From contig OX467086.1 in NCBI GenBank assembly GCA_950106755.1, positions 15,394,001-15,458,000 of the forward strand: 64,000 bases of DNA, written 5' to 3'. Both the position numbers and the translations under genes were made by a program. The notes beneath the pieces are model-generated. The model was not told the DNA's origin, ran no database searches, and worked only from the letters and a program-made list of their open reading frames with translations. Below are positions 21,601 to 54,922 of this stretch, piece after piece (the stretch's first letter is position 1; each line of letters begins with the position of its first letter). This DNA is from Climacium dendroides. Taxonomy: Eukaryota > Streptophyta > Bryopsida > Hypnales > Climaciaceae.

Positions 21601-21794
21601 AAATCCAAAAGTTTGTGGCCCATGTGTAGATCCAGAGGTTTAATCAAGCAAAATTTGGCATGGACCTTCGAAGGCAAGTGCCACTTGGTGCAGAAAATAA
21701 GGTCCATGCAGACATTCACATGCTAGAAAAATTCTCAAAAAATACATAATGTATATAAGGTGATGAAAACTTCGGAACAATAGAGTTTAGCGAT
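18691..21794. other. PIE1 3' flank, then AT-rich non-coding DNA
   Basis: The first 200-300 bp after the stop should be 3' untranslated sequence; I see no clear polyadenylation signal. GC content falls between about 18.8 and 19.4 kb and then stays low. No frame of convincing length or composition exists, and I see no tRNA or transposon end. A small inverted motif (ccgaagaggtgcccttcgg) is at 19,051-19,069. Confidence 0.5.
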
Positions 21795-23982
21795 AATCTA
21801 TTGATCGATTTCATAATGTGGGACTTGCAATGACAATGCTATAAAAGAGAGAGGAAGTAAGTTGCATTTCAATAGACCAAATTCAATATAAAATGCCGGA
21901 TAACAAATATACAAATGCTTAAGTGCATGCTTGGATTGACCAATGTAAGCGATAAAATCACCAAATCTACTACAATATGCATGACATGATGATATTGTAC
22001 TTCATACTAACCCTACCATTCCAATGTTGTTTTATTTATTTATTTTGTAGGCCTTTTTAGAGGATGAGAACTCCTTCCCTATACCTATATTTTAATGATG
22101 TGCACTAATTTTTGTTTAACAAAACGCAATGTCTCAGGCTTAGTGCCTGACAATTATGTTTGGACCCAAAGAAGGTGATTCCAATACAAACATTTTGTGT
22201 CCTTTGGTTGATTCCCAACAAGCAAGTCACAAGGATGGCATATAATACTTTCTCATCCCAATTTTTCAGCAAGGATTGTTGGACCCTAATTTCAATGCAA
22301 AAGATGTTGGATAATCCTTCCTTGCAATATTTATTGACATTCCTATATAGTTCAAAATCAACAAATCCACTAATCACCTTGCAATGTATTTTTGAAAGTA
22401 AACTTGTAAACTTGTAGCATTTCTAAATTCAATTTTTTTCATTTAAAAAGAAAAGTGTTAAAAAATGATGATCTCTTGCCAAAACAATCTCATTGTTGAG
22501 TTACTGTCTTCCAATTATGCCTTAGTTAGAGCTATTCATGGTTTAGTTTGTTTTTTCAATCTTGAGCTTGCTTCTACTTAACAATTTTGCAATGAGTGAA
22601 AACAAAACGTCTTTTCTTTGAATTTTTTTCATGGGTTCTCCACTTAGTTCTTCAAAACAAAAAATTGCAAAACCAAAATATATATTGCAAAAGATTGATG
22701 TTAAGAAGATTTCAAAGCCAAAACATCTAGTCAAGCAAGTTGCCAAAAAATGCGTTTTCATCACTTTCAATACAAATATCTCACTAACAATTTTCAAAGT
22801 CAAACTTTTAGAAATTCTTCTACACATTCTTAGACTAGTCTAAGTACCAAATTCTATGGTTTGATATGCAAAAAAAATCCAAAGCTTTTAGCAATTTGCA
22901 ACAAAAATGGTAATTTTGAGTGGTTTTGATGGAGAAAATAAAGATCTTCAAACTTTAAGAGTTGTAACACACAATGCATGCAAAAATAAGAAGCTCAAAT
23001 GAAGTAATATATCAAACTCAACATGATTTCATTTGACCAATATTCTATCCAAAAGTCTTCATTTTAAATTTTTGTGCTTTCTAATAGATTTTAATTATAA
23101 TTTTTGCATAGTTGATTTGCCTAGTCTAAAATTATTACAATCCAATTTTCAATCCAATTACAAATAAATCCAATCCAATCATGATGTACAATCCAAATGG
23201 CACAATACTTGTCACTTTCAAGGGTGAAAGCCGTTTGTGAAACAAGTTATGGATGATGAGGGCTTTGATATAGAGAAGTTTGTAACACGAAAGGAATTTA
23301 CAAAATAATAGAACAATGAAGCAATGGATTGGACCAATGTAGTTATCTAGAACCAAACTTAAAATTTGGCCCCACTTTATTTATCTAATTTTTCAACAAA
23401 CTTAGACTCTAAGATAACTTATTCAAACTAATTTGATGGGCAACATTTGGACAAATCATTTTGGCGCATCGCAACAAAATGGGGAGTTTCGTTTAAATGG
23501 CACCATTCCACAAACATTGACACTTTTACAATTTAAATTGCGCAATTTGAAATCTATTCCTATACTAGATGTTTTGAGCGAGTTAGCTTGAGTGGTGCAA
23601 AGCCAACATGGTATAATTATGCAAAGTACAAACAATAGAGGTAACATATGTGAGCATTCCAATTCAGAACAAGGCAAAACATTCATGCAACAATTTCATA
23701 AAGTTTCAACAATTTTACACGTAGACACCCAAAGCAACCAAATCACGGTAGCTCATTAAGTTGTTTCAAATAATATTCAATTGTTCCATCACACGTGCAT
23801 ACAAATTCTTGCACCAATCATTCAATCAATGAACTAGTACTATCTACAATAAATGATCAATGGCTAGCTAGCTCAACAAATTGATTGACTTCAATCTACA
23901 ATTGGAGAGACTGATCGAGTGATCCCAATATATATTCTTTGTACAAAACAAACTTTGTCAGTTTGTCATGGTTCATGCTACC

Positions 23983-24492
23983 CTAGTCAATTTCCATAGG
24001 AGTCACTTCACTTTGGGCCTCCAATTCATATAGTGGATGCGCAAAAGTATAAAATTGATTGAGGCTCTCAGGAGCATCTTCCATCAACTGGTCTTGTTGC
24101 TTGTTGTCAATTGGATGGCTTTGAGAGCCAAGTTTGGAAAGCACAATCGGTGGCTTCTCCACAAAAGTGGAGACTTGCTTGGTAACAATATTGGGAGCCA
24201 ATTGAGGGCCAAGCCTAGAAAACACAGACCGCGGTTTTTCCTCATAAGTGGGCACAAAAACTTGTTGCACATCAAGTTGTTGTCCGTCTTGTTTGGGGAT
24301 CCGCCTCCATACTCGAGACCTGTGTGGTTTGGGAGCACTTGGAGTAGGTGCAACGTATACATAGTTTGGATGCACGTAATGGGTATTGTGGAAATCACGG
24401 TGAAGACCACTTGAGCCCCTAGAAACTATGGTCGCCATAAAAGAAATGGTGAAGAACAAGACTATTGGCGCAAGAGAGTAATTGGATGGCAA
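23983..24492 (-). CDS. Predicted secreted 169-residue protein, unknown function (copy A)
   Basis: I do not recognise the family. The product starts with an N-terminus of signal-peptide type (hydrophobic core about residues 7-24, LAPIVLFFTISFMATIV), followed by a His/Pro/Tyr-rich stretch and a Gln/Val/Pro-rich body. Two internal repeats share the pattern E-K-P-x-x-V-x-S-[RK]-L-G-x-Q (about residues 91-103 and 121-133). The C-terminus is acidic. A TATA box on the same strand lies about 165 bp upstream of the ATG. Copy B encodes a product differing at two residues (Ile/Val near 21 and Ser/Phe near 95). The V-F-x-R-L-G motif recalls linker sequences in some plant retroelement proteins, so a transposon origin is a weak alternative. 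Confidence 0.55.
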   Translation of the reverse strand: MPSNYSLAPIVLFFTISFMATIVSRGSSGLHRDFHNTHYVHPNYVYVAPTPSAPKPHRSRVWRRIPKQDGQQLDVQQVFVPTYEEKPRSVFSRLGPQLAPNIVTKQVSTFVEKPPIVLSKLGSQSHPIDNKQQDQLMEDAPESLNQFYTFAHPLYELEAQSEVTPMEID

Positions 24493-24656
24493 TGGCTATA
24501 TGATCAATATGATTGCCAAGAGAATTGTGTGCCTCAAGAAAAATTAGAATGCTAGATGTGAGAATGAATGAGGCACGAGTTCAATGGGGCTTAGGTTGGT
24601 AGGTACATTACATTACATTACAAAAAATAATCCTAAAACCGAAGGAGAGGCTCCAA

Positions 24657-24664
24657 TATTTATA
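24657..24664 (-). promoter_or_regulatory. TATA box of the secreted-protein gene, copy A
   Basis: The minus strand reads CTATAAATATTGG, a canonical plant TATA box. A start of transcription about 30 bp downstream (near 24,630) would leave a leader of about 135 nt before the ATG at 24,492. The same element is intact in copy B. Confidence 0.55.
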
Positions 24665-24676
24665 GTTCACTTTGAT

Positions 24677-24804
24677 GAATGCAAAGTAAAAGAAAAAGTC
24701 CCATTCCAAATGGTTGGCTTAGAATGCAAAACAAAAGTAAAAGTCCCATTCCAAATAGTTGAATTAGAATGCAAAACAAAAGTAAAAGCTTCATTCAAAA
24801 AAGG
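24677..24804. repeat. Tandem repeat of about 50 bp, upstream of the copy A gene
   Basis: Blocks containing aatgcaaa, gtaaaagtcccattccaaat and ttagaatgc repeat two and a half times. They lie just upstream of the TATA box of the minus-strand gene and could act as promoter repeats. The array is conserved in copy B. Confidence 0.7.
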
Positions 24805-25099
24805 TTGGATGAACATGAATCCAAAGTAAAAGATTGGACTCAAGTTGAGGCTTGGCATGGCATGGCATGTGTGGCACCAATGGTTCTCATATTTTGGCTA
24901 TGAACACTTTGCTATGATTTCCAAGCTCATTGTTTTTACTTTGCATAAGGGTGTGCATCTTGCTAAGTGCTCATCTCAAAAATAATCCAATGAACTTGCT
25001 AAATCCAAATCATTTCAATAAATCTAAACTACTTTATGTCTTTACTTAGGCTGTCGTAACCTAAAAGACGAAGCCTATAACAATGTAGTCAAACTTGAA

Positions 25100-28000
25100 A
25101 GTCCCTCACTTTATATCCTCCATTTCTTTGTTATTTATGAGTGAAGTTTTGGATTTCATTTTATCACAGATGAAATCATATGTTTGATATATAGTGTCTC
25201 TCAAAATGTTCTGTACGCTTACAAAACTACTTGATTTGAAATAAATTTGGACATATTGTGGCACAAGTAAGAAAATTGCATAAAATAAACTTTTGAAAAT
25301 TCTGAAATGAATTTTGAATTCTTTATAATTTTATCAAATTATCATAAGTGAACCAATTGAAGTAAATTTTGTTCAAGATTTTGTAGTAAGTCAAACGAGA
25401 ATTATTTTTGGCTGTTTTTTTGGTTAAAATTTTACATAGTAAAGTTTTACTCACTGAAATACAACTCCAAATATTTGTCATTTTGGATTATTTCCTCCAA
25501 AAATCTCCAAAAAAATTTGAAAAATTTGAAAAGTGTATAAAATATTTATATGTTATTTTTTCATGATATTTTGGAGATTTTTGGAGTGAATTATAAGGAT
25601 TTAGGTATTTAAATTTGTATTTTAGTTAGTAATTTTTGACTCCATCCATCCATTAAATTCGGTTGTTTGTCTCTTTGTTATGTTGAGATCTCCTCGATCA
25701 ACCCCCAATCACGTTTTGGGTACCATTAGCAATCTCTTTGTGAAGAGGGGTGCATAGGCTTTGTTGGTACCAACGGAAAGCTCTTTGCAAGAAAGGGGTC
25801 ACAAACTTTGTTTTGTGGCATTTTGACCTACAATTATTGAATTTCAAACTTTTGTGAATGAAAAAAATTAGAAAATTACTTTTACTGGCAATTATTGTGG
25901 CAATGGCACAAGGCATACTAGTATATACTTTAAGTGAGGTTGTTTGTTTTCTTTGATACTATGAGATTTAAGAAACCATGAGGCTTCCAACATTGTTCTA
26001 GGTGCCCTTGGAAAGCTCTCAATAAGGAGGGATACACAAACTTTGTTTTGTGGTGTTTGGAACTATGGTGTGAAACCTGATAAACTATCTTTTATTTTGG
26101 AAAGAAACCATAACTTTCACATCGCATGTCTAAACACCACAAAATAAAGCCTTGCACTTCTTTGTGCATACAACTTTCTCTAAAGAACGCAACCTTTCAC
26201 ACTATGGTGTGAAAGGTAAAGTTATTGAATTTCAAAGTTTTAGTGAATTAAAAAATTAGAAAATTATGTTACTTTTATTTTGGCTATGGCAATGGCATAG
26301 GGCACACTAAAGGAGTTGATCCATTTCCAAATGTCATCCAATTCTTATAGCTTAGGATCCTCCATTTGTGATAACTTGTATTATAGGTGAAAGCTCATGT
26401 ACATCATGGATAATAACAACAACAACAAAGATGTGTGGGAGGTATACATTGAAAGCAAAAAATGATCACAACATGTACATTGAAGGCCACAATGATCCCC
26501 TCCATTGGTTTTGTACGCAGTCTATGGCTAGAAATTGGTTTTCCAATAAATCGAGAATGGGACAAATAGAATCTTCACCAAAAAAATTCATGATAATTTT
26601 GTTTGGGAAGAAAACATTGTCAAAAGTTATGAAATCTTTCTTAAATCTATTTCTCTACACATGAAATTTTTTTCCTCAACCTCCCTCATGCCATAGATAG
26701 GTTGAATTTCTTAATCCTTGAGGGCCCTAGCAACCCAAATATGGCCTTCATTAAGTGAAAGGTTGCCTTGTTTGACTATCATAATCTTTTCAACGATACA
26801 GTCAAAACATTTGTCCATTTTCCGTACTTTTGAGCCTATATCCACTATTGATTTCTACAATCAATTGTGATGGATCTCGTTTTCGGTGACAACTTGATTG
26901 GAATGAAAGGGTATGAATTTTGGTAAATATGTAATGGGCACTCAAAGGGTTAAGTAGTTGGAAGTAAGGTAGAAGGCTCAAGAATGACACATCTAATGAA
27001 AAAAACAAATGTGTGGAAGAAAGTAACTAACTAGCCAAAGATTTCCAATTTTTATTGGTAGATAGAGAAATGGAAAAGAAAAAAATGGCAATTTAAATTG
27101 TAGTCTTCTAACTTAGAATGAATTAGGTATGCCTTTCTAAGGTGAAGAACCTATAGGTCGCTATTGATGGTCATAGATTACAAGAGCAATGAATCAACAT
27201 GTGCTTTTGGAAAGGGCTCCAAAAAGATGAATAAGGTGATTATTATGTTCAAGAAAGTTCCATAATGTGTGAATGAAATGTCCTCAAGCAAGCAAGATAA
27301 ATATGTACCCTAAATTTAATATTTACCTCTTCTTTTTTATTGTCTTTTAGAATTTTGTGTTCACAATTGAATGATGCATTCATGATTCATACACATATGA
27401 CACATGATAGTGGTCCAAAAGCACTACTCACTTCCCTAAAATCACTCACTTGGAGTCACATTTTCCTACCTTAGAAAATGGAATTCATTTGAGCAACAAC
27501 ATGCCCTCATTATGGACATGTCTTAGGGTCCATTGTAAATGCCCACACTATTTAAGGACCTCTTCCTATAAGTATGACAAATACCAAAAAAATGTGTGTT
27601 TAAGTAGCCAAGGTGGTGAACTTATCATCCACTATCCAAAGTACACTTCCACCTATTTGTCTCTACAATTATGAATAATCACATTCATGAATTAAAAACT
27701 ATGAAGTATGCATATTGCATTCTCCGTACATTGCTCTACACTCGGTCCATTATATTTGAATCTATGATGGTTTTCTTTCACTTTGCTTTTGCTTAGTATT
27801 AGTACAGTTTGGAATCAAAAAGTTATAAAAAAAAATGTTCAAACCATAATTGATTAAAATTCCTACTAATATTATGGTTTATCTCCAAAAGCTTAGAGTG
27901 CTTGCAATACTCCAATTTTCTACTTCTAGGGGATATAACCAAGTGTTTGATAGGTCAAATGGGTATCTAAGAAACAACTAAGAGTCCAAAAGATAGCTAG

Positions 28001-28804
28001 ACCTTGTAATTGCAAGATTCCCATCAAAGACTAAATGAACCCATCATCCTTATATGTCACTAAACATGGCAAAATGCAAGCTAGTGGTAGCAATAGAAAA
28101 GCCTTTTTAGCTTTAGATATACTTGTAGTTGAACAAATTAGAAGTTACATTTCATTCCGTGAGAATTGTAGAAAATTAGATGTTGGCCTTGCAAACAAAA
28201 CTTCATGTAGTAAAAGGGACGGTGCAACCAAACATTGAAGAGACATGTTCTTGTTACAAAAACATGTGAGGAGCTCAATGGCACAATCAGGTTGTCAAAA
28301 TTCCCTTCTAGTCAAAAGATTCTTTATCCATTTAAATTAAGAAGAGGTATTTAATTTAGACCTTGTGAAAAGTGCAAAGCAAGAATATGAGCTTGCACTT
28401 AGTGTTTGAAAACCCCCTAGACAACCTAGAGCCTAGAGGTTACCTAAAATTTTTCAAAGTTATCTAGAATGCAGAAGATGACTTTATGGAAAATCAACCA
28501 CTTTAACCAATGATTGAAAATTCCTAAAAAGTATCCAAGTGGTGGTAAAATTCCACTAAAAATTAGGATTGAATGTTTAGAGATAATAATGTACCGCAAA
28601 AACTCTCAAGGCATTCTAACACTACAAGTACATGAACTAGTAGCTTCTTCAAATTAGACAAAATTTAAACAAATTTGATACATTTATCGACAAAGTGGAA
28701 GCTTGCAATTACCAAACAAGGCCAACGGGGAGTCTTTTCTTTCTCTCATAACTCTTCCAAACACTCTATGGAAGTCAAAATATTTAAAAAGTGCAAATTC
28801 CATC
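25100..28804. other. Right half of copy A: no intact gene
   Basis: Copies A and B both have short open frames here (near 26,368, 27,450 and 28,035), broken by stops and differing by small indels. A distant relative at about 47.0-47.8 kb keeps patches that translate alike, so an old protein-coding element may underlie the region. I cannot assign it to a family. Confidence 0.35.
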
Positions 28805-28810: not shown

Positions 28811-28912
28811 GTTGCTAGCAGGCGAGCTTGTGAGCGTGAGCCCATGAGCCTGTGAGCCTATGAGCGGGAATTTTTTTTTTTATGAAAATGTAGGGGACCT
28901 ATGACCGTGGAT
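28811..28912 (+). repeat. Candidate left terminal inverted repeat of the MULE
   Basis: Contains gttgctagcaggcgagc, several tgagc motifs, a T-run and gggacctatgacc. The order matches, in inverted orientation, sequence near 43,180-43,385. Spacing differs by about 55 bp between the ends, so the match is patchy. Confidence 0.4.
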
Positions 28913-29960
28913 GTAAGTGTCTTATTTTTTCTGAAGATGTGAGGTCATTCTTCAAAAATTTAACTTACTTACAAACTTAAATGAAAAAAAAAATTGCAAC
29001 AACCAATTGTGTTTAATCCATAAACGCCGCGGAGGACGTCAAATGTCTAATGAATGACAAAAGAATCTCATATGTAGGACGTAACTGCAACTATTCATCC
29101 ATATAATTAAGGGTGGGAAAGAGAGATCTTCTACAGTACTTTTAAAGTAAATGATTCCAGAATCACTGATTTCCATGGTAACCAGACCGACGTTCAAGAG
29201 TTTATTTTGATAGAAAACATAAAATGAAATTTTTTGAAGGCGAATGAATCATACTAAAGATGTAGCCATAAAACACACAATCAAATCAAATTATATTGAA
29301 AATGAATACATAATAGTTTGACTCATGAGATATATCAATCTCATGAATCTAGATTGTAGTGGATTCAGTTGCAGACGTCAAGCTACTCTCATACTCTGAA
29401 GTCTCTTTCCCCTTTGATGCTGATCCATCTATGAATTGCAAAACATTAAGAGCATATGTGTCTTTTCTACGTTTTGGTTCTAAGCTACCAAAGTTTGCAA
29501 ATGCTGATGCTAATTGCTCAGCATAAACTAGGAGATCAAAAGACTTTACTGGACTTAGTACCAGTTTGCGTCTCTTCCTCAATGCATCTGCGAACATTAG
29601 TTTCTGACGCCTAAAAAAAAATTTAGAGTATTAGAGTCACAAAATAAAAGAAGTAGAATGTCAAATAAACACTTAAAAATTTTGAAAAACTTACTTACTA
29701 GGTTTAGTTCGGCGAGGAAATTTTCAAGGAACCACAGTCATTGTGTCCGGATCTTGTGAAGATGCAACCGGCATTGGCGGTTGCGTTTCTGTTATTATCA
29801 CATCTTCTTGAGTGTTCCTTTTCATGGGTTTGAGGACGCCATGAAAAACACTATTGTCTTCCTCTAAAGCCACTATGTGTCGTCCTGTGCCGCGACATGC
29901 TGTAATTGATGCACCTACAATTTACAAAATGCAATTCATATCAATGAATCACTATATCAC

Positions 29961-29979
29961 TATATATATATATATATAT
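29961..29979. repeat. AT dinucleotide microsatellite in a methyltransferase intron
   Basis: A (TA)n run of about ten units lies in the 95-bp intron between the two exons that together form methyltransferase motif I. Confidence 0.85.
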
Positions 29980-30009
29980 GAAAATCCAATTCTTGAAATG
30001 AAAACTAAC

Positions 30010-30289
30010 CAGTGGATGTTGTGCAGTCCAAAACCAAGTCGCCTTCTTCAGTTGTCTCTTCTATAAGAAATTAGAAGAACCTAGTATCCTTTTCACGAGG
30101 CCTTTGCTATGGAATTTTGGTTTGTGGATTGACCAACATGCTCTCTTTAATTGTGTAGTTAATTAATGTATCATCCTTGCGTAGGTCTACTTTTGCTTTC
30201 TGCATTGCTTCTGACCGCTTCAAAGAGAACTTCGACTTCTCTTTATCACCGAGGTCCTTCACCAAGAGAGTGATTCCAAACTTCAAAGT
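30010..30289 (-). pseudogene. Exon with methyltransferase motif I start (SAM-binding region)
   Basis: Reads in one frame from TLKFGITLLVKDLG to GDLVLDCTTST and ends in phase 1. The next exon (29914-29699) supplies G-A-S-I-T-A and GRHIVALEED. Joined, this fits the V-L-D-x-x-x-x-x-G pattern followed about 17 residues later by an acidic residue that binds the ribose of S-adenosylmethionine. Two in-frame stops (30,107-30,109 and 30,071-30,073) interrupt the exon. Confidence 0.65.
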
Positions 30290-30384
30290 CTACAGTCATA
30301 AAAAAATTATATATTAGAAAAGAATACAACCATCTGTGAATGTCAATTTCCATTAAAATCATGAAAATATTTGAAAACACTAAC

Positions 30385-30738
30385 CGTTTCCGAGTCATCC
30401 ACAGCTGAAGTTAAGTGCATACGATTGATGCCCAACCATTCCTTCTTCTTCACCAGTGAAGGATAAGACTCGCACAATCCTACAATAATGCCCTTTGAAT
30501 CGGCACACCACAACTGAAATACTATCATACAACCATGGTCTTGTAAGTGCATATCTGCAAAGAAGAAGGCCGATTGAATGGCCTCATACTCTAGATCTGA
30601 ATTCCATGAAGGTATTGCTTTCTCTGGAGTACATACATCCGGGACAAGTAAATTTTCTTGGCAGTCAAAAAAGATGAGGTCCACTAAAGGTGCTCGGCTC
30701 ACTTTACCTCCATACATACGGGGCTTCCCTAGTGCCAA
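30385..30738 (-). pseudogene. Exon with motif IV-like region of the methyltransferase
   Basis: This 118-codon exon is open throughout and in phase 0 at both ends. VDLIFFDCQENLL sits where N6/N4 methyltransferases carry D/N-P-P-Y/F in a hydrophobic strand. It is followed by PEKAIPSW, a helix with FFFADMHLQDHG, and the strand CMIVFQLW, a spacing typical of the catalytic core. The catalytic P-P-[YF] is replaced by C-Q-E here. Confidence 0.6.
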
Positions 30739-33116
30739 CTGCAGAAACAAATTTATGCAAACAATCAATTATTCATACAACTTTGTTTAAAAGGTCCAAA
30801 AAATTAAGGTTTATTAGTTTCAGGCAAAACATCAAGGTTACCTTCTTCAAAAAGGTTGTTACTTTAGTATAGCACATAGACACGTCAGACTCCATGTTAT
30901 CCATTATGTCGACAATAGAGACGTTCAAGATCAATTCCTCTAAAATGACGTCTGCATCATCACCAAGAACTATGACCTGAGTACCTTGTGTCACGATGTC
31001 CTCAATGAAATCCGGAAGTATCGCCTTCCTCTTCAATCCACTTTGGGATCCACTTTGCATGTGTGAGTTTTGATCAACCATTGAAGAGGCCGGTACTTGT
31101 TTATGGCCTTCTTCCTTTTTCTTGCCTTTGCCTTTCCCCTTGCCCTCTTCTTTCTCCTTCTCCTTCTCCACCAACTTAAGAAGACGCTTTGCTTCTTTTT
31201 TGTCCTTGTTCTCATGAATCTTTTGCTCTTTGTTCTCTTTCTTCTTGTCAGCAACCATTCTCCTTGCAATTGCTCTCTTCTTCTGTTGATCACTGTAGTT
31301 GTTGAATTCGAGAACATCCAAGTCAATGACACCGAGACCATCTAGTGATTTCCGAAGTTCTATTTTGGATGGATGAGTGAATGTCAACGGACAATCTAGA
31401 TACCACGCACCACCACTGAAATGCGTCGTCGTGAAGGTCTTCAGTTGGCTTGACGTGTACATGCACTCTTCAGAACTCCGGTCCAGCCATGTGGTTAGAA
31501 ATGGAGGAAGGTCCTCCCTAGAGATGGCGTTCTTCTCTAAGAGCTCGTACTTAAAATACCTAAAATAAGAACATTACAAAAATTAGTAACAATCACATAG
31601 CCGAATTCCTTGTTACAAATAACACACATTCAATGAACAAATAACTACATATGTAAATCCTTCAAAGAAATTAAGAAATTCTAAAATTTATATTTATATA
31701 CATGTACCGGAAAATAACTCTACGAACAGCGTCATTTGATCCATCAAAATTTGAGAAGGTCTCTGACTTCTTGAAAGGGTTTGATCCCTTCAAAGCCGGG
31801 CCAAATCCTTGATCCCAAATCTTCCTTCTCCATCCTTCTATATACTCTGGAAGATACTCCGGTTGAAGCGGGGCTGCCATATTGATTTTGAGGCCATCTT
31901 TATTGACTACATTGTCAAAATACTCTACCGCACTATCCTCAATCTGCATCATGTTCTTGTCAATACATTTTCATTGTTGTTTGATATACATGAAAAAACA
32001 AAAGTTTACAATGTAGTACTTCAAGATTTTGACATTACATACATGAAAAGTCATTTAAATAAATACAAACACTTACCCCTGTCCACCAAACCCATTTATT
32101 GAGGAAGGGCCCCAATTTCTCTTCTGAAACTAGCTTTGGAAGGAAACGTCTAGCATCTCGTGAAGGCATGGATGAGTTCCACCACTTCAACAACTTTGTC
32201 TTCTGTGCTGCAGAGGTATTGCAAGTAGCTATCATTTGGAGCTTTTCCAAAGTCCTTTCAGGAACCTCATTTGTGCCCAATGCTTTTCAACCTTCAAAAT
32301 GAAATAGAATTATATCAACAATAAATAAACCATAATAACAAAAAATAAGACAACCAATTTTTACATCAAAATTGTCCATCACCTCTTCCAAAAATCCTGG
32401 ACCGTGACTAGGATTTGCCACCGCAAGCAATTTTCCCATTTTCACGTACAACCTTGCCACCTTCTCTTTAGCCCCAACCCTCATGGCATTAGCCACCCCT
32501 TCATCACTTTTATCTTCAGTTGCTGTCACTTCATTGTACTTTCGTACTGAGGCATCCGCTCCTTGTGCTATCTCTTGCTATAAAATAACATCAACAAAAT
32601 TTCAATTATACCAACACTAGTAGAAAAATACAGTGACCAAATTAACAAAAATCAACAGAAAAGTATTGATTTTTTTTGTTAATTTGGACGTGTTAATTTG
32701 GGCACTTTTGAACAGAAAAGTGTTGATCTTTGAACAAAAATGTGTTGTTTAAGAACAAAAAAGTGTTGAATTTCTAACAAAAAAGTGTTGTTTTAGAACA
32801 AAAAAGTGTTAATTTTTTTGTTAATTTGGTCACAATATTTTTTTTGAAAAAAAATGAATAAAAGGTGACACATGGAAATGCCACATAGGCACCCCAACTA
32901 GCCACGTGGCATGCCACACAAGCTACTTGAATGCCACATGGACAGTCCAAATGCCACATTGGCAATTCATGTGGCCAATGTTGGCATCAAGGTTTGAACC
33001 TTGAACCTCATGGTTGAGGCCCAAGACTCAAACCAATGCATCACTTATACATATACATGTTTAAAGTGTATATAAAATTTTATTTGTTTAGTTTTTCATT
33101 TTTTTCCCATTTTTTT

Positions 33117-33479
33117 TTAAAGTCAGCGTACTTCAGGGCTGGTTTTGACTTAGTAAATGACCTTTTCTCAAGAAACTTTGAACTAATAAAAGTTGGAAAA
33201 TCAAGCCAAATTTCACCTCCAACAATCCGTTTGAGATTTCGATCCTCCAATCAAAAGTTATGGACAAAAATCAGAGAGGGGTTTTAAAAATGTAAAAGAA
33301 ATGATTCATTCTCACCCCTCTCTGATTTTTGTCCATAACTTTTGATTGGAGGATCGAAATCTCAAACGGATTGTTGGAGGTGAAATTTGGCTTGATTTTC
33401 CAACTTTTATTAGTTCAAAGTTTCTTGAAAAAAGATCATTTATTAAGTCAAAACCGGACCTGAAGTATGTTGACTTTAA
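33117..33479. repeat. 166-bp inverted repeat with 31-bp loop inside the CACTA element
   Basis: The left arm 33,117-33,282 and right arm 33,314-33,479 are reverse complements with about 8 mismatches in 166 bp (about 95%). Mismatches cluster at the outer ends; the inner roughly 110 bp is perfect. Transcription through it would give a long double-stranded hairpin. Confidence 0.93.
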
Positions 33480-33536
33480 GAAATACCGAATTGTTAATGT
33501 TTAGTTTTAAAAAAAATCTACATTGTACAATTAAAG

Positions 33537-33620
33537 ATTCCAAGAGATTCCAAGAGATTCCAAGAGATTCCAAGAGATTCCTAAAGATTCCTAAAGATTC
33601 CAAAAAGATTCTAAAAGATT
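33537..33620. repeat. Short tandem array, 11-bp unit (attccaagag)
   Basis: About seven units of gattccaagag drifting to gattcctaaa and gattctaaaa lie in tandem inside the CACTA element. Confidence 0.85.
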
Positions 33621-34191
33621 TAACAAAATTTTGTTGATTTTAGTTGCACTATCCAAATCAACAAAAATAATGTGACCATTTTGTTAATTTGGGCAAAATC
33701 AACAAAAATTTGTGAAAATAGACAATACAGTACCCAAGTTAACAGAAATTTGTTGACTATTTGTTGATTTGGTCACTGATTTTCTACTAGTGCAAATTTA
33801 TACATTCTTTAGCCTTTCCTATATTATCATGACATAAAATGAAGGATATATAAAACAATTCGAACATTTTCACTCTTACCCGAAAAACAAATGCTGTAAA
33901 GACCTCCATTGGCATTGAGTACCATGTTTTTCTCACAGATTGCGTACCACAACGTTTCCTCTCTAAAGGTCTCAACATTTCATTGAACTTCTCCATGGGA
34001 AGAAGCCCATACTTCTAAACACGATAAAGAGTGTGAACTAGATTGGTCTTCACATGGGAATCCTCTGTCGACCTACAATTCACATTAAACAATAAGTTCA
34101 TTTCATAGATATGAAGTAATTGAACCTCAAAATACTAAAAGTAAAAGATTATGTTCAATCAAAGAATATTATATGATACCCTTTTACTTAC

Positions 34192-34856
34192 TTGTTGATG
34201 TCATGCATAATCTACATGACAAGCTCTATTCTCCCTTTTGTATCTAAAATGATGCTGTCTACTGAAATGTGCCAAGCCCGGTCCGCCACATGCAACCTTG
34301 ATATATGATTCATCCATGCCAAGCGACGGTGATTTCCATCACAGACAAAGAACTTGGAGTTCTTCAAGTAACTCAATTCTGGCAAAGAATCTAAGTACTC
34401 ATTGAAGATGTCATTCTCCAATTTCCACAAAGGACCCCAGGCATCTATTTCATCTCTTGAGAATTATGAAGACTCCCCCGCCTCATTAGTTGTGGACACG
34501 TAAAAAACTACGGCTCCATCCCGATATCCATGAACAAACTCTTGTTCAAGTTTTACAAGATCACAAGAGAGGGTGGGCCTAACCATTAGCATGGGTACCA
34601 ATCTGCACAAAGGTATGCGCATTCGGGAGTGTTTTTGAGGCCTCATCCTCAAACTCTCAATGGTAGCCACGGAGTCTACCTTTTGCAACTGTCGCAGTTC
34701 ATCTTCCAACAACTCCTTCTCCTCCTCCTCCTCAACATCATTCAGCTCAACATCTCCTTCTTCCTTAGTGCCAATTTCTGGTTGACCTCTTTCACTGGTA
34801 GGTGGAGTTGAATGAACTTCCTCTAGCTGTGACAGATTAATTGGTGACTCCTCCAT
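34192..34856 (-). pseudogene. Exon with ParB/sulfiredoxin-like domain
   Basis: Starts with ATG at 34,854-34,856 right after a CTTGTAG acceptor-like sequence, so it may be an internal exon. It encodes a Glu-rich leader, then R-I-P-L-C-R-L-V-P followed by R-P, and about 75 residues later FFVCDGNHRRLAWM. In ParB-like domains the second block (G-x-H-R) binds the nucleotide or forms the active site. Stops at 34,464-34,466 and 34,212-34,214 lie in the same frame, with matching protein sequence on both sides. Confidence 0.6.
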
Positions 34857-35076: not shown

Positions 35077-35529
35077 TCAATCAATTTCTACACTAGCATC
35101 TGAGTCAGAACTCAAGTGGATGAGGACAATTTTGTGTTTGCCCAAATCAGAGCTGCAAGCACTATCTCTAATATCCTCTATTGGTGGACTAGAAATGGAG
35201 ATTGATGTTTGACAATTACAGCTACTATACTCAGTCTCAGAACTCTTAGTAGAGAACACTGGTTGTTTTCGTTTTTGTTTGTAGGAATCACTGAACCTAC
35301 TACAAGAAGGCTCATCTAATCGATCAGCTATTCAGTCACAAGCATCAAGAATGTCTCCAAGGCTTACCAAGTCAGTGTCTTCATGAGGCAATGACTGGCT
35401 AGCAATGTTGACGTTCCTTTCTTATGGAGTCCTAGGTTCCGAAGTTCCCGGAACCTCTGCAATATGGATTGCCATATTGGAAGGTACTGATAAAAGGGCA
35501 TGGTCATCCAGACTCTCATGTGTATTCAT
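35077..35529 (-). pseudogene. Degenerate upstream exon or separate ORF with a SUMO-interaction-like motif
   Basis: One frame from ATG at 35,527-35,529 runs 151 codons with internal stops at 35,422-35,424 and 35,332-35,334. Its end encodes K-H-K-I-V-L-I-H-L-S-S-D-S-D-A-S, a hydrophobic core followed by acidic serines, like a SUMO-interacting motif. It lies 220 bp upstream of the ParB exon on the same strand and could be an earlier exon of that gene or an unrelated remnant. I do not recognise the rest. Confidence 0.35.
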
Positions 35530-35784: not shown

Positions 35785-36054
35785 TGGTTCTTGTCTTCCA
35801 TTTTGATGGTGTGTGCAATGAGGTCCACGGCGTCTAAATTCTAAATGAATTTCTCAATGAACTCAAAGTCACATCAGGCAGTATTGCCTAATACCGCAAA
35901 TGAACTACTCCTACCGGAGCATGTTGTACCAAAATGCAGGACCCAACGGAACCCTCATGACGTGACTGGAGGAATACAAAACAATAAACTGAATAAAACT
36001 AGGGGACCCTGTGGAAAATTACAAACACACTACAATATTTGAAAACCAGAAATT

Positions 36055-36074
36055 GGGGTAGCTCACGCTACCCC
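36055..36074. repeat. Palindrome 2 (GGGGTAGC-tcac-GCTACCCC)
   Basis: Perfect 8-bp arms with a 4-base centre. Confidence 0.9.
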
Positions 36075-36106
36075 AGGGAAGGCTATCAGGTCCAACAGGG
36101 TTCCTT

Positions 36107-36126
36107 GGGGTAGCTCATGCTACCCC
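36107..36126. repeat. Palindrome 3 (GGGGTAGC-tcat-GCTACCCC)
   Basis: Perfect 8-bp arms; centre differs by one base from palindrome 2. Confidence 0.9.
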
Positions 36127-36378
36127 CACTTTCCGTCTTGCTACTTCATTCTGGTCCAGCCATGTCCACTCTGGTCCAGCCATATTCAATCTGGTCCAGC
36201 CATGTTCACATTGGTAATTCAATCTGGATGGAAACCTGTAGGAACTAGAGGACCAAACTGCAGGACCCAACGGAACCCTCACGACGAGACTAGAGGAATG
36301 GAAAACAATAAACTGAAAAAAACTAGAGGACCTTGTGGAAAATTACAACCACACTGCAATATTTGGAATCCAGAAATG

Positions 36379-36398
36379 GGGGTAGCGTGAGCTACCCC
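36379..36398. repeat. Palindrome 4, inverted centre (GGGGTAGC-gtga-GCTACCCC)
   Basis: Perfect arms; the centre is the reverse complement of that in palindromes 2 and 5, so this copy has flipped relative to its neighbours. Confidence 0.9.
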
Positions 36399-36430
36399 AG
36401 AGAAGGCTATCGGGTTCAACAAGGTTCTTT

Positions 36431-36450
36431 GGGGTAGCTCACGCTACCCC
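36431..36450. repeat. Palindrome 5 (GGGGTAGC-tcac-GCTACCCC)
   Basis: Identical to palindrome 2. Confidence 0.9.
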
Positions 36451-36727
36451 CAGTTTCCGTCTTGCTACTTCATTCTGGTCCAGCCACCCTGAAGTCTGGT
36501 CCAGCCATATTCACTGTGGTCCAGCCATGTTCAATCTGGTCCAGTGATGTTCACATTGCTAATTCAGTCTGGATGGAAACCTGTAAGAACTAGAGGACCG
36601 AACTGCAGGACCGAACGGAATCCTCATAACAAGACTGGAGAATGGAAAACAAGAAACTGAATAAAACTAAAGGACCCTGTGGAGAATTACGACGACACTG
36701 TAGTATTTGAAATCTAGAAATGTTGTG

Positions 36728-38235: not shown

Positions 38236-38508
38236 TGTAAGTGTGCTAGGCATAGCCGCCAACATCAATAAATGTTTTACTGTAGAGCACTATTATTAGA
38301 ATGGTTTTGAAGTTGTAAGACAATTGTGAATGTCTTGTACATTTGAAGTTTAACTACTTCCTAGCATCCTATTCAATTTTCACTAGTTGTATAGTAAAAT
38401 CAATATGCATAAAAACACTCACTATAAGAAAGTGAGTGTTCATACTCACAACACCAAGGACTAATTTCTGGTTGATCTTCAGTACTGTGTTCAAGCAAAG
38501 ATTGTATC

Positions 38509-41500
38509 ATGGCTTGCATCTGTGTAGATGGCCATGACATTCCCTTAGTGTTTCCAGTTGATGAGGGTGGACACGCTAGGGTTCTGAGCCATCTGTTGCA
38601 TGTGCGCTTTAGATTTATGGAGTCGTCCATCTATGTCGAAGAAGAAAGAATGTCTAAATCAGGAGAAGTGCAGCAGTTAATTCCAGTAATAAAGTCTATA
38701 GAGGAAGGAAGGAAGTGTTGGTATCTTCCTATTGGAAACTATAGAGCTTATAGGCTACCGTTGTCTATGGTAAGTGCATCAACAGAAATTCAAAGTCGGC
38801 AGTTAGACAACTCTTCTGTAGATATGCCATATGTTGCTCAAATGGTTTCATCCAGTCCTAGTTGTCAAGCTCTTCCAGTCGGCCAGTCCTTCTTGATAAC
38901 TCAGGTCTTCGCCCAGTGAAAATTGAGAAGTTAGACAGCATCATAGAGTTGTCTAGTGAATCAGAGGGAGAGTCCCCTGACTTAACAGTTCAGAAAAATG
39001 CATGCAAAATTGAAGTTGCATGGCAAGAAAATACTTTTGTGAAGCCATTGTCAAGCACCCCATCAAACAGTGGAGGTCAAACTGAAGTGTCCCGTCCTCC
39101 ATTGCATCCAAATATAGGGAACCGAGTGAGTATAATGGAGTCTTTGAGGGGATTAGGCAAAATGCATCGTTCACGGAATGAGTTGTCAACGACAGACTTG
39201 AACAGCATGAAGCACCATCGTGTACAGTTTCTTCCACCCATGTTCAATGGAAATGTCATATTTGAGTTGCCTCCATGTTGTTCATCTTCATCTTCATCAG
39301 CGGCCAAGAACTTGGAAAGAATGGATAAGAGATATGATGGACACCAATGGTACAAGTTCGTGACCACAAACATTCACAACTCCGATAAGTTGAAGTTCCG
39401 TAAGTCATACTGCGCTGGTCATCTTGTTTGTCTAAATGTAGAGTGTGACTATCTGAAGAGGGCTTCAAAGCGCAACGAAACTGAGTGGAGTGGTGCGACA
39501 ACCTTCGCTTTCACAGTAGGGGATACTCCTCCCAAAGACTGTACTCTGGTTTGCAAACTCTGTAGAAAAACTCCTATATGTCTAAGCACCTGTGATGCTA
39601 GGATGTACTACTGCTATAGTGAGAATCCTAAAATGACTAGAGCCGCTATTCATTTCGGAGATTATGCTCACCCTGTTGCCAAAGGCATGTACAGGGATTC
39701 TGTAGAGAAGATTAGTGAATTGATTGCGGAACAAGTGGCCAAAACACCTACGGCCACGAACTCCGCCATTGCTCTATCGGCAAACAAAGACTTCCTTACA
39801 AACTATTCTACAACGGAAATGGAGATAAAAAGATGTTGGAAGGGGAAGAATTGGAGGAAGTAATGGATCGTTTCTAGTATTTGAGCAGTCCCAACATTCG
39901 GAATGTGATTTCTTCATTTCGCTCAAACAATAGAGGAGGAGTCATAGACAAGATTATGACCATGAAGAGAGACTCGAAGTTTGAGTTCATTCATGATAGC
40001 GTTTTTCCTAGTCAAGGAAAGGAGAAGGTATACCTTTTCAAGATGCTCACCGAAGGACTTGGTAGTGGAGTAGACTTGGTGAAGCGCATGCAACCAGGGG
40101 GGAATTTGCAGAATGCATAGATGATGTTTGACCACGTTAAGCGTGTGAAGGATTGGACCACAATGGCTTGCCACGTGAACGATTCTGAGTACAAAAAGGT
40201 AATGACCATTGCAACATGCGATATGCAGTCTGAAGATACAGAAATTCAAGTACAATTCTGGAGGTCATTGAATGTTGTAATGTCAAGGCATGGACTAAAT
40301 CACCCAAACTTCAAAGGGTTCATGGCAGATAGTGCTATGGCCAATTGAAATGCAATTCGAATTGTACGGAAGTGGATGTGCCAATGACAAAATGGAGAAT
40401 AGGGAGAGGACATGCTTACTGCATTGGAGTACTTCTCTTCAAAAACATACTCAAAAACATATAAAGGAAGCATTTCAACAACAGCACAATACACTCTGCA
40501 AACAGTATAAAGATGCAAAAACTATGGAGGAGGCAGAGACACGTTACCTAGCAATTCGTTCATGGTGGTTATCATCAGGTGCTACAATGGAAGATGCACT
40601 TCATCACTTGGAGCATTGGTTGGCATTTTGGCATTTCAGATACCGACAGTGGGGAGGCTCATGCAAATGGTAAGGCAATATTTACTTTTCTTTATGTCAA
40701 TTTATTACCATACGGACAAGTAGTAGTCATATTGGACTTGAAAAATGAGTAGTATGTTGATGATGTATTTGTTTCAGCAAGAATAGTATGTTTTCCTAAA
40801 TAATTAATTAGGAATGCCTTTCATCCCATTTGAACTATACATGCACATAGTTCATGGTCTTCACTATTTTTTGTAGCTGGAATGAATGAAAGTAATTATG
40901 AGAAGTAATTTTGATTATTGGATGCATGTCTAGGATTTGAATTTGGAGGAAATGGCAGACATGCCTTCGTGCAATCTATCAGAGACAGTTCATAATAAGT
41001 GGCTTCAAATGTCTGGCAACCAAGGAAATAATTTGTTTGATGCCACATATGATGATAGCATCCGTGCGTGGATGCAAATAACAAACTACCGTGCATATCT
41101 GAGAGGCCATGCCTCTGGATTCAATCCGTCGAAGGGGGAGTTGAAGTTGAGAGCTGCAAGACGAAGTGGAGATCCTAAAAAAGTGGCAGAAGCATTGAAT
41201 TCCCTACCTGGATCTGAAGGAATTGGAAGTCGTATACCACATTTGGAAGAAGAAGAGATCTTTGGGAGTACAAAGAGGAAATTGGACGCGCCAATTGGCG
41301 ATGCAGGAGATTCACATCGAACAGACAAAGTAAATTTCTTTCAACCTCGTGTCCGAACAAGGTCCACTATTCCTCCTACAAACTCTTTAGAGGGCAAAGG
41401 AAAAGAACCAGAGTCAAATAGGTATAACCATGTCACAATTGCATTTGAAAGCGACTGTGACACATCGAAGTGGCACATTGCAAGGATCAATCACAAATCT

Positions 41501-42323
41501 AATGCTAAGTGTCAAGCTCAACAACAAGGGTCAAATATGAAGTGCACTGCTTGAATTGCAAGAGGATGAAAGGGGAACACCAGCTCCAACTTATCGTGGT
41601 AGAAAAGAAGATTACGAAACTAAACGAGAGGTATTTGTAGACTTCTAGTTTTGTGCAGATGATATAGAACGATGTGTGAAGGGTACGAAGCGTAAGTGGG
41701 TAATAGATTGGCCAGATGTGCCAGAAATTTGGCCTGTTTTGACAGGGACAAACCTCAGTCGAGACGAGACTTTGCTGTTGCAACATGCTGGCTTTCGGTT
41801 GCAAGAACAACCTACATTGTCACCACGTCGCTTGTTCAGCATGTCAAAGGTTTTTGAAAGTGTTTTGTATGATGAGGTCCCGCCAACAAATGCAGATCTG
41901 TATCCTATAGTGAGGAACAATCGAACCATACGGCGAATAGCAAATGCACCAACTGTAGAACAACGCAATAAGTGGGAGAGTGCAGGCAATGTTAGAGGTC
42001 AAATTCTAGGAGTGACCTTGCTTCCTTTCCCAGGACTAGGTGCAATCATATCTCTGGAGACTGGGATAGATCAGAACAAAAATGTGTATCGAGTGACAAT
42101 GGGTATGTTTCCTTCCTGCACATGTCCAGACTTTGTGAACATGTCTACTTCAGCTATTGGAGGACGTCAACAGTATGTGAATTGCAAGCACCTATATTAC
42201 TTGTATTGATATTTCTGTAAGATGGACATCCATGACGACAAATTCATTCGTGCACCGAGTTATAGTTTCAATGAGTTGAAACTTCTTTTACTTCGAGCAG
42301 GAATAATCACTGTGCCACAATAA
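38509..42323 (+). pseudogene. SWIM zinc-finger MULE-like transposase, degenerate
   Basis: Fragments in all three frames line up as one decayed MULE transposase. An N-terminal part (38,509-38,919) precedes a frame change and a SUMO-interaction-like IIELSSESEGESPD near 38,940. A Cys/His DNA-binding region follows (39,330-39,690) with GHQWYKF, a C-x5-C-x4-C cluster and a distal H-x5-HPV. The catalytic core (40,121-40,660) includes VMTIATCDMQSEDTEIQVQFW-like and NFKGFMADSAMAN segments and AFWHFRYRQWGG. An intron with GT-AG borders is likely at 40,670-40,933. The SWIM finger C-T-C then C-K-H is at 42,118-42,192. Premature stops are at 39,875, 40,118, 40,346, 41,646 and 42,207, with frameshifts near 38,900, 39,830, 40,365 and 41,545. 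The gene cannot make an active enzyme. Confidence 0.83.
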
Positions 42324-43179: not shown

Positions 43180-43385
43180 TTTTTTTAAAATTCACGGTTA
43201 TAGGTGTCTTGGTCATAGGTCCCAAATTTTACTAAAAATAGTAAGTATACGTCTAATTTTGGAAAGAAAAAATATATTTTTTTTTTGGTTTTTTTTGGGG
43301 GGGGTCCAATTTATGGGGCTCCATGCTCGCAAGGCCTACACTCGCAGCTCACAAGCTCGCCACTCAAGGCTCGCATGCTAACATC
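43180..43385 (-). repeat. Candidate right terminal inverted repeat of the MULE
   Basis: Read on the minus strand: gttagcatgcgagcc, gcgagcttgtgag, further gcgagc motifs, a homopolymer run, then gggacctatgacc. These are the landmarks of the left end in the same order. Confidence 0.4.
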
Positions 43386-47000: not shown

Positions 47001-47820
47001 ATTCCCAAAGATAGTTTTCAATTTCTTACTCAAATTCATAAATTAGTAGAAACTCCAATTATTAGCATGTAGGTGATACAAACTCAAGATGGACAAATGG
47101 AGAGCATCTACACTGGAAATATGGTGTTTCAAGGTAGAAATCACACCAAGAGTCCAAAAGCAAAATTGGTTTGCTGAGATTCCTTTATGTATAAAAGATT
47201 CTTTAGTCATTGGTAATTAAAGAAGATAAGAAGATTTTATTTTCCCTCTTCGAATGTGCAAAGTAAAATCATGAGATTTCACATGTTTTGTGAAATTCTA
47301 TAAGGAATTCAAAAAAAATTGGGTATTTTTTATTTTCAAAAGATCCTCTTCCAAATAGTTAACTGCTCAAATTTATGATGAAAAATTCTGAAAAATTATC
47401 CAAGTTGCAATGAATTCTCACTAAAAATTAAGATATGTAAAGCTTTTTTTTTATACTTACAAGACACTCCAACAACTTTCATAACATTCCGACATCTACA
47501 TGTATCCAAACTAGAGAGATTCTTCAAAATTGACAAATACAAAGATGATTTGTGGAATTGACTAGCATTTTGGGAATATAAAAAATTAGGCAGAGGTCAA
47601 AGAAGGGTTTTTCTTACTCCCTTTTACCTACCAAAGAGCTTAAAGTAGTTACTTTATTAAAAGACTTTTTTGTAAAGAAAAGGAAGAAGGATGTCCTACA
47701 AAATGAACATGGACTTTTAAAGCCAATAGCACAACTTGTGTATAACTTGGAGTCTTTTCCAAAAGTTAGAGTTTTGGATGAATGTAGAAAATAGAAATTC
47801 AAAAACTTAGGATGAAAATC
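47000..47820. repeat. Ancient relative of the right end of the 7-kb segment
   Basis: Sequence at 47,150-47,560 follows the order of landmarks of copy B at about 58,640-59,060 (aaaagattcttta, gtgcaaagtaa, cactaaaaatta, ttcttcaaaattgac). Sequence at 47,715-47,765 matches 59,280-59,325 (taaagccaat, tggagtcttttcc). The latter translates alike (L-K-P-[IM]) in one frame, hinting at an old coding sequence. Thus the family extends beyond the right edge of copies A and B. Confidence 0.5.
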
Positions 47821-52035: not shown

Positions 52036-54228
52036 CACGAAAATCTATTGAACGACTTTTATAATGTGGGACTTGCAATGCCAATGCCTATAAAAGAGAG
52101 AGGAAGTAAAGTGCATTTCAATAGACCAAATTCAATATAGAGTGCCGGATCACAAATATACAAATGCTTAAGTGTATGCTTGGATTGACTAATGTAAGCG
52201 ATAAAATCACCATATCTATTACAGTATGCATGACATGATGACATTGTACTTCATACTAACCCTGCCATTCCAATGTCGTTTTATTTATTTATTTTGTAGG
52301 CCATTTTAGAGGATGAGAACTGCTTTCCTATACCTATATTTTAATGACGTGCACTAATTTTTGTTTAACAAAACGCAATGTTCCATGCTTAGTGCTTGAC
52401 AATTATGTTTGGGCCCAAAGAAGGTGATTCCAATACAAACATTTTGTGTCTTTTGGTTGATTCCCAACAAGCAAGTCACAAGGATGGTATATAATACTTT
52501 CTCATCCCAATTTTTTAGCAAGGATTGTTGGACCCTAATTTCAATGCAGAAGATGTTGGATAATCCTTCCTTGCAATATTTATTGACATTCCTACATAGT
52601 TCTAAATCAACAAATCCACTAATCACCTTGCAATGTACTTTTGCAAGTAAACTTGTAAACTTGTAGCATTTCTAAATTCAATTTTTTTCAATGAAAAAAA
52701 TTGTGTCAAAAAATGATGATCTCTTGCCAAAACAATCTCATTGTTGAGTAGTGTCTTCCAATTATGACATAGTTAGAGCTATTTATGGTTTAGTTTGTTT
52801 TTCAATCTTGAGCTTGCTTCTACTTAATTCTTTTGCAATGAGTGAAAACAAAACGTCTTTTCTTTGAATTTTTTTCATAGGTTCGCCACTTAGTTCTTCA
52901 AAACAAAAAGTTGCAAAACCAAAATATATATTGCAAAAGATTGATGTTAAGAAGATTTCAAAGCCAAAACATCTAGTCAAGCAAGTTGCCAAAAAATGCG
53001 TTTTCATCACTTTCAATACAAATATCTCACTAACAATTTTCAAAGTCAAACTTTTAGAAATTCTTCTACACATTCTTAGACTAGTCTAAGTACCAAATTC
53101 TATGGTTTGATATGCAAAAAAAATCCAAAGCTTTTAGCAATTTGCAACAAAAATGGTAATTTTGAGTGGTTTTGATGGAGAAAATAAAGATCTTCAAACT
53201 TTAAGAGTTGTAACACACAATGCATGCAAAAATAAGAAGCTCAAATGAAGTAATATATCAAACTCAACATGATTTCATTTGACCAATATTCTATCCAAAA
53301 GTCTTCATTTTAAATTTTTGTGCTTTCTAATAGATTTTAATTATAATTTTTGCATAGTTGATTTGCCTAGTCTAAAATTATTACAATCCAATTTTCAATC
53401 CAATTACAAATAAATCCAATCCAATCATGATGTACAATCCAAATGGCACAATACTTGTCACTTTCAAGGGTGAAAGCCGTTTGTGAAACAAGTTATGGAT
53501 GATGAGGGCTTTGATATAGAGAAGTTTGTAACACGAAAGGAATTTACAAAATAATAGAACAATGAAGCAATGGATTGGACCAATGTAGTTATCTAGAACC
53601 AAACTTAAAATTTGGCCCCACTTTATTTATCTAATTTTTCAACAAACTTAGACTCTAAGATAACTTATTCAAACTAATTTGATGGGCAACATTTGGACAA
53701 ATCATTTTGGCGCATCGCAACAAAATGGGGAGTTTCGTTTAAATGGCACCATTCCACAAACATTGACACTTTTACAATTTAAATTGCGCAATTTGAAATC
53801 TATTCCTATACTAGATGTTTTGAGCGAGTTAGCTTGAGTGGTGCAAAGCCAACATGGTATAATTATGCAAAGTACAAACAATAGAGGTAACATATGTGAG
53901 CATTCCAATTCAGAACAAGGCAAAACATTCATGCAACAATTTCATAAAGTTTCAACAATTTTACATGTAGACACCCAAAGCAACCAAATCACGGTAGCTC
54001 ATTAAGTTGTTTCAAATAATATTCAATTGTTCCATCATACGTGCATACAAATTCTTGCACCAATCATTCAATCAATGAACTAGTACTATCTACAATAAAT
54101 GATCAATGGCTAGCTAGCTCAACAAATTGATTGACTTCAATCTACAATTGGAGAGACTGATCGAGTGATCCCAATATATATTCTTTGTACAAAACAAACT
54201 TTGTCAGTTTGTCATGGTTCATGCTACC

Positions 54229-54910: not shown

Positions 54911-54922
54911 GTTCACTTTGAT

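What the first reader, a model, noticed from the sequence alone, without database searches (positions are those of the whole stretch)
29349..34856. A plant transposon-borne ParB-like / DNA methyltransferase fusion
The minus-strand exons give a conceptual protein with a ParB/sulfiredoxin-like signature (I-P-L-C-R-L-V-P ... VCDGNHRRLAWM) near the N-terminus. At the C-terminus it has methyltransferase landmarks in permuted order: VDLIFFD..., a Trp, a strand, then GDLVLDC...G and GRHIVALEED. ParB-like domains fused to N6/N4-type methyltransferases are known from phages and bacterial mobile elements; I do not know of a described plant transposon carrying one. Exon phases, GT-AG introns and position opposite a MULE transposase suggest it was a eukaryotic, intron-bearing cargo gene. 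If relatives exist in intact form, they could be transposon-encoded writers of N4-methylcytosine or N6-methyladenine in plants.
Basis: partly seen in the sequence, partly recalled or inferred. Interest (0 to 1): 0.9.

Follow-up and report, generated by a model that had tools for sequence, protein, structure and literature searches.

The report
Plant transposon gene with dead-looking methyltransferase
A broken gene lying beside a transposase-like gene in what is likely a moss-like plant genome ends in a stretch that matches bacterial-virus DNA-methylating enzymes but lacks their usual catalytic letters, so its working relatives would likely bind the transposon's DNA rather than methylate it.

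Summary
The gene is real. On the minus strand, 34856-29349, ten exons give a conceptual protein of about 1113 residues, broken by six in-frame stops and a frameshift. One relative was found, an unannotated protein of the moss Ceratodon purpureus (788 aa, E=3.6e-47), matching exons 3-10. The C-terminus is methyltransferase-derived: PHROGs E=1.2e-8; profile comparison with phage methyltransferases beats all 150 shuffles of each sequence. Both plant proteins lack the DPPY-type catalytic motif and the FxGxG motif; 243 and 235 of 244 phage relatives have them. The ParB half is not supported: no Pfam or PHROGs hit; 11 of 200 and, with a cleaner profile, 29 and 43 of 200 shuffles score as well. Inverted-repeat-like ends (28.82-28.91, 43.21-43.36 kb) enclose this gene and a divergent, broken transposase-like gene. 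The kind is published: Ectocarpus has a 1104-aa ParB-like/methyltransferase gene opposite a Sola1 transposase, and that paper cites green and red algal cases (PMC12477816). New here: a likely land-plant version with replaced catalytic motifs.

The parts
34192..34856 (-). exon 1; acidic N-terminus, then the stretch read as ParB-like (IPLCRLVP ... VCDGNHRRLAWM); two in-frame stops
   Evidence: no ParB profile match
33880..34072 (-). exon 2; one in-frame stop
   Evidence: GT-AG, phase consistent with exon 1 (end read from the donor printed)
32365..32577 (-). exon 3
   Evidence: open frame, AG acceptor and GT donor; KLLAVANPS stretch matches the Ceratodon protein
32077..32280 (-). exon 4, from where the reading is confident; frameshift at its beginning, acceptor not fixed
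   Evidence: 54% identity over 35 residues to P0001
31708..31943 (-). exon 5
   Evidence: matches P0001
30842..31559 (-). exon 6, with a lysine-rich low-complexity linker
   Evidence: first part matches P0001
30385..30738 (-). exon 7; methyltransferase motif IV region, with DCQE where the phage enzymes have DPPY
   Evidence: P0001 has DAPE
30010..30289 (-). exon 8; REKD stretch and start of motif I (GDLVLDC); two in-frame stops
29695..29914 (-). exon 9; rest of motif I region (STGASITAC...RHIVALEED); one in-frame stop
   Evidence: 53% identity to P0001 over 32 residues
29349..29610 (-). exon 10; C-terminal tail
   Evidence: open to its final stop; collinear with the P0001 C-terminus
38476..42209 (+). 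transposase-like gene, divergent to the above; broken across two reading frames; SWIM-like C-terminus (41649-42209)
   Evidence: (SWIM E=0.02, below cut-off)
28821..28906 (+). candidate left terminal inverted repeat (GGCGAGCTTGTGAGC and GGGACCTATGACC)
   Evidence: two exact collinear inverted matches; 1 of 200,000 sampled block pairs has two such matches, 154 have at least one
43211..43361 (-). candidate right terminal inverted repeat
35928..36722 (.). three imperfect direct repeats, spaced 324 and 344 bases, between the two divergent genes (a shared control region is only a guess)

Best explanation
This is a broken, intron-bearing gene, likely cargo of a decayed transposon of about 14.6 kb in a moss-like plant, whose C-terminal part matches bacterial-virus DNA methyltransferases but lacks their catalytic motifs, so its intact relatives would likely bind the transposon's own DNA as an accessory factor instead of writing a methyl mark. 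Shown: the exons, the stops and frameshift, the methyltransferase relationship, the absence of the usual motifs in both members seen, the neighbouring divergent transposase-like gene and the candidate inverted-repeat ends. Inferred: that both genes belong to one element; that the family descends from a ParB-methyltransferase fusion of the type found in phages and reported in algal transposons; that the N-terminal stretch is a diverged ParB-like DNA-binding domain; that loss of the DPPY-type and FxGxG motifs means loss of methyl transfer; and that the retained fold helps the element by recognising or shielding its DNA during transposition or against silencing.
For: Exon structure. Moss homologue E=3.6e-47, collinear with exons 3-10. 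Methyltransferase domain: PHROGs 1.2e-8, 7.2e-6 and 6.5e-5, and 4.8e-4 for P0001. hhalign of the two plant sequences together against 66 sequences related to phage ParB-methyltransferases: probability 91%, 188 columns spanning both motif regions. Singly, the window reaches probability 89% over 71 columns and Ceratodon 52% over 48 columns, both around motif I only; 0 of 150 shuffles of each reach the score. Motif loss: neither motif pattern occurs in P0001; 243 and 235 of 244 phage-contig relatives have them. The shared STGASI stretch suggests that the altered form is older than this copy's decay. Element ends. Precedent in Ectocarpus, 1104 aa, opposite strand to a Sola1 transposase (PMC12477816).
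Against: The ParB part has no statistical support, and the Ceratodon model lacks that half. Only two members were seen, one a pseudogene and the other an untested gene model. PF01555 stays below its cut-off for the window (17.3 against 26.7 bits) and P0001 (14.5 bits); solved methyltransferases match only at E=0.11 or worse, close to unrelated chains. That DCQE and DAPE sit at the motif IV position rests on the two-sequence profile alignment alone. No target-site duplication was recognised. AlphaFold models were too poor to use (mean pLDDT 33.7 and 40.8). The alignment search found nothing at E<=10, not even P0001. The algal proteins were not at hand for comparison.
Confidence: 0.5

Rival explanations
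1. The intact relatives are active N4-cytosine or N6-adenine methyltransferases that mark the transposon's own DNA, as proposed for the algal proteins; the plant motif changes are a tolerated variant or reflect decayed copies.
For: The Ectocarpus paper predicts this activity for its protein. Overall similarity and motif order fit. One proline of the motif is kept in the Ceratodon DAPE.
Against: Neither plant member has DPPY/NPPY/SPPW or FxGxG, and both share the replacement STGAS.
Confidence: 0.25
2. The gene is a host gene or captured host-gene fragment that happens to lie next to the transposase-like gene, not cargo belonging to the element.
For: The Ceratodon protein comes from a 28.7-Mb contig as an ordinary predicted gene; its context could not be read. 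Plant Pack-MULEs, mentioned in PMC12477816, carry captured host genes (recalled).
Against: Inverted-repeat-like ends enclose both genes; the two-gene layout and product length resemble the published algal element (about 1113 versus 1104 residues).
Confidence: 0.15
3. The N-terminal half is not ParB-like at all; only a methyltransferase-derived protein with an unrelated N-terminal region is present.
For: No ParB profile match; 11 of 200 shuffles score as high, and 29 of 200 and 43 of 200 with a cleaner 25-row profile that recognises 28 of 41 control sequences. Nine of 172 other open frames of the window score higher.
Against: The best local match to the phage profile falls on the DGNHRRLAW stretch, in the N-terminal position expected for the fusion; the algal precedent has a ParB-like domain in a protein of the same size. 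The profile missed 13 of 41 controls, so a miss is not proof.
Confidence: 0.45

Closest known systems
Sola1-1_Ec32 accessory protein of Ectocarpus, and the green and red algal transposon proteins it cites (PMC12477816, section 5 read; the cited Iyer 2011 and Petroll 2025 were not held)
   Same: Accessory gene opposite a DNA-transposon transposase; similar length (1104 versus about 1113 residues); methyltransferase domain of N4/N6 type; ParB-like domain claimed
   Different: Here a SWIM-like transposase partner, a likely land plant, no statistically supported ParB domain, catalytic motifs replaced; sequences not directly compared
Phage ParB_N - N6_N4_Mtase fusion proteins (L003-L005)
   Same: Methyltransferase domain of the same kind; ParB at the N-terminus in the phages
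   Different: L003-L005 are 416-422 residues with canonical methyltransferase domains (PF01555 E 1e-27 to 9e-29); the plant gene has introns, a middle region of roughly 500 residues and a C-terminal tail
DNMT-bearing retrotransposons of dinoflagellates and charophytes (PMC5890265, abstract and outline seen)
   Same: Mobile element carrying a DNA-methyltransferase gene
   Different: C5-cytosine class, in retrotransposons, with activity shown according to the abstract
Marchantia N4-cytosine methyltransferase and bdelloid N4CMT (PMC8885841, passages seen)
   Same: Bacterial-type amino-methyltransferase genes in a eukaryote
   Different: Host enzymes; the passage seen says the Marchantia one lacks extra N- or C-terminal domains and acts genome-wide

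Membership tests
Beta-class N6/N4 DNA methyltransferase (PF01555) | Significant profile similarity | tested here: met
   PHROGs methyltransferases 1.2e-8, hhalign above all 150 shuffles; but the Pfam score of 17.3 bits is below the 26.7 cut-off
Beta-class N6/N4 DNA methyltransferase (PF01555) | Motif IV before motif I | tested here: met
   Both regions align in that order in the two-sequence comparison; single sequences align only around motif I
Beta-class N6/N4 DNA methyltransferase (PF01555) | Catalytic motif IV [DNS]PP[YFW] | tested here: not met
   DCQE in window, DAPE in P0001
Beta-class N6/N4 DNA methyltransferase (PF01555) | SAM-binding FxGxG | tested here: not met
   DCTTSTG and DWSASTG
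Beta-class N6/N4 DNA methyltransferase (PF01555) | Methyl transfer to DNA | not testable with these tools
   needs an intact protein and an assay
ParB N-terminal domain (PF02195) | Profile match | tested here: not met
   none at E<=10 in Pfam or PHROGs; shuffles score as high in 11, 29 and 43 of 200
ParB N-terminal domain (PF02195) | DGxxR-type motif in a ParB-like fold | tested here: inconclusive
   DGNHRR present; fold model unusable, pLDDT 33.7
Transposon-borne ParB-methyltransferase accessory protein (Ectocarpus type) | Gene opposite a transposase inside one element | tested here: inconclusive
   Divergent genes within candidate inverted repeats; no target-site duplication and no second copy seen
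Transposon-borne ParB-methyltransferase accessory protein (Ectocarpus type) | Sequence homology to the algal proteins | not tested
   no call returned an algal sequence
MULE transposon | MULE transposase core and SWIM | tested here: inconclusive
   SWIM E=0.02, below cut-off; no transposase family for the core
MULE transposon | Target-site duplication of 8-11 bases (size recalled) | tested here: inconclusive
   none recognised at the candidate ends, read by eye

The most novel reading that the evidence does not exclude
Land-plant DNA transposons carry a phage-type ParB-methyltransferase fusion that has been turned into a catalytically dead DNA-reading factor serving its own element: a transposon-encoded pseudo-methyltransferase that recognises transposon DNA without marking it.
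Probability: 0.3. Interest if true: 0.72.

Novelty: new variant of a known kind. Interest (0 to 1): 0.5.

Why it matters
Transposons that carry their own DNA-modification genes could shape how hosts silence or tolerate them. The algal cases suggest self-methylation; a plant branch with shared loss of catalytic motifs would suggest a second use of the same protein, DNA recognition without modification. It also warns against treating every such domain as a 4mC or 6mA writer in plants.

Tried and rejected
Unmasked whole-protein search: 7994 candidates scored, none at E<=0.001. Masked search: one relative among 6040 candidates. Alignment search: none among 7142 at E<=10, P0001 included. Scans of viral contigs with A1, the ParB exon, P0001 and the N-terminal half gave one viral-contig methyltransferase (L001) and no other relative; genome contigs gave nothing for A1 and one match for the ParB exon, whose ORF shares little beyond YLKNSKFF and was dismissed as chance. 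P0001 against plasmids: no match at E<=0.01; against phages: 66 records at E<=1, the ten listed at E 0.09-0.5, of which eight are annotated as methylases or methyltransferases, one as 'Rsrl' and one as hypothetical. Solved structures by sequence: 8 chains at E<=10, best 0.11, three of them unrelated T-cell receptor entries. AlphaFold of the ParB exon and of P0001 with window exon pieces failed, so no fold search was run. The 7-kb direct repeats as long terminal repeats: no TG...CA ends or matching flanks by eye. The single best local alignment of the element ends was not unusual (6 of 641 blocks score as high); only the two-match collinear test is, and the left end was chosen because the 7-kb repeat stops there. 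Passages of PMC12695648 (adenine methylation in eukaryotes) held no ParB or bryophyte mention.

Limits of the yardsticks. The 66 profile rows were chosen from 232 ORFs that carry DPPY or DPPF; 41 of them come from the L006 family, whose lead member has no ParB_N hit at E<=0.01. I therefore repeated the ParB test with the other 25 rows; it gave no support either. The counts were made without the DPP filter, on 244 of 245 loci, patterns sought anywhere in the ORF, without thinning of near-identical ones; the loci themselves had been found with peptide patterns from such proteins.

Full report
What is there. On the minus strand, 34856-29349, ten exons can be read. All nine introns start with GT and eight end with AG at the boundaries taken; the start of exon 4 is uncertain because of a frameshift. 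Together they give a conceptual protein of about 1113 residues. The copy is broken: two in-frame stops in exon 1, one in exon 2, two in exon 8, one in exon 9, and the frameshift.

Relatives. A masked search found one protein among 6040 candidates, P0001, a hypothetical protein of the moss Ceratodon purpureus (788 aa, E=3.6e-47). It matches from the end of exon 3 to exon 10 in order and so supports the exon reading, the C-terminal tail included. Its model begins after the ParB-like stretch and says nothing for the N-terminal half. The host species was not identified; a moss-like plant is an inference from this one relative.

Methyltransferase. The C-terminal 247 residues match phage methyltransferase families (PHROGs E=1.2e-8, 7.2e-6, 6.5e-5), PF01555 weakly (E=0.0048, below cut-off) and CcrM weakly (E=4.7e-4, far below cut-off). 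P0001 matches PHROGs at 4.8e-4. Against a profile of 66 sequences related to phage ParB-methyltransferases, the two plant sequences together align through both motif regions (probability 91%, 188 columns). Singly they align only around motif I (71 columns, 89%, and 48 columns, 52%), but none of 150 shuffles of either sequence reaches its score. The relationship is therefore real. The motif order, IV then I, rests on the joint alignment.

Catalytic motifs. Where the phage enzymes have DPPY, the window has DCQE and Ceratodon DAPE; where they have FxGxG, the plants have TTSTG and SASTG, followed by AS. Of 244 related viral ORFs, 243 carry a canonical motif IV and 235 D.F.G.G; P0001 has neither. 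That set is biased, having been found with patterns from such proteins. Because the two plant proteins share the altered STGASI stretch, the change likely predates the decay of this copy. This weakens the idea of active 4mC or 6mA writers; activity itself was not tested.

ParB. There is no Pfam or PHROGs match at E<=10 and no tblastn match in phages at E<=10. With a cleaner profile of 25 rows, 29 of 200 shuffles of the stretch after the first stop and 43 of 200 of the whole stretch score as high; the same profile recognises 28 of 41 control sequences at probability 50 or more, so it is sensitive but not fully. The fold prediction was unusable. The ParB label is thus a motif-level lead, made more plausible only by the algal precedent.

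The element. A transposase-like gene, broken across frames, lies divergently at 38476-42209; its end resembles SWIM (E=0.02, below cut-off), and its core matches no Pfam transposase. The MULE label is therefore unproven. Two exact inverted matches of 15 and 13 bases, collinear, lie at 28821-28906 and 43211-43361 and enclose both genes; 1 of 200,000 sampled block pairs shows two such matches and 154 show at least one. No target-site duplication was recognised. Three imperfect direct repeats lie between the two genes.

What is known. [quoted passage not shown] The two papers it cites were not held. Retrotransposons with C5 methyltransferases are known from dinoflagellates and charophytes (PMC5890265, abstract seen). 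Among the titles and abstract starts listed I saw no land-plant case; several lists were capped, and the library lacks most subscription papers.

Verdict. A real, decayed plant relative of a published kind of transposon cargo, with methyltransferase ancestry shown, ParB ancestry unproven and catalytic motifs replaced. The most likely role of intact relatives, DNA recognition for the element without methylation, is inference.

Noticed in passing
21791-28804 and 52038-59171: Two ~7-kb direct repeats, 97% identical over 6 kb and 95% over 1 kb, each holding a 170-residue open frame; the left one stops where the candidate transposon begins. A diverged third piece (60%) lies at 47150-47662.
   Followed up: partly
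33113-33483: Fold-back insertion in intron 2: two 170-base arms, 95% complementary, 31 bases apart; diverged relatives at 43.95-44.56 kb. Looks like a miniature inverted-repeat element.
   Followed up: no
35077-35528, minus strand: A further small broken open frame upstream of the gene, serine-rich, ending ...IVLIHLSSDSDASVEID; the transposase-like frame holds a similar SIIELSSESEGES. Both look like SUMO-interaction motifs (recalled, not tested).
   Followed up: no
9836-18690, plus strand: GC-rich (about 56-62%) gene region with SNF2, helicase C and Myb domains, likely a SWR1/PIE1-type chromatin remodeller (name recalled), next to AT-rich repeats.
   Followed up: partly
L002:40-2133: A Streptococcus phage ParB-methyltransferase protein with Hint and intein-splicing matches ahead of its C-terminal methyltransferase part (below their curated cut-offs), suggesting an intein in the methyltransferase.
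   Followed up: no
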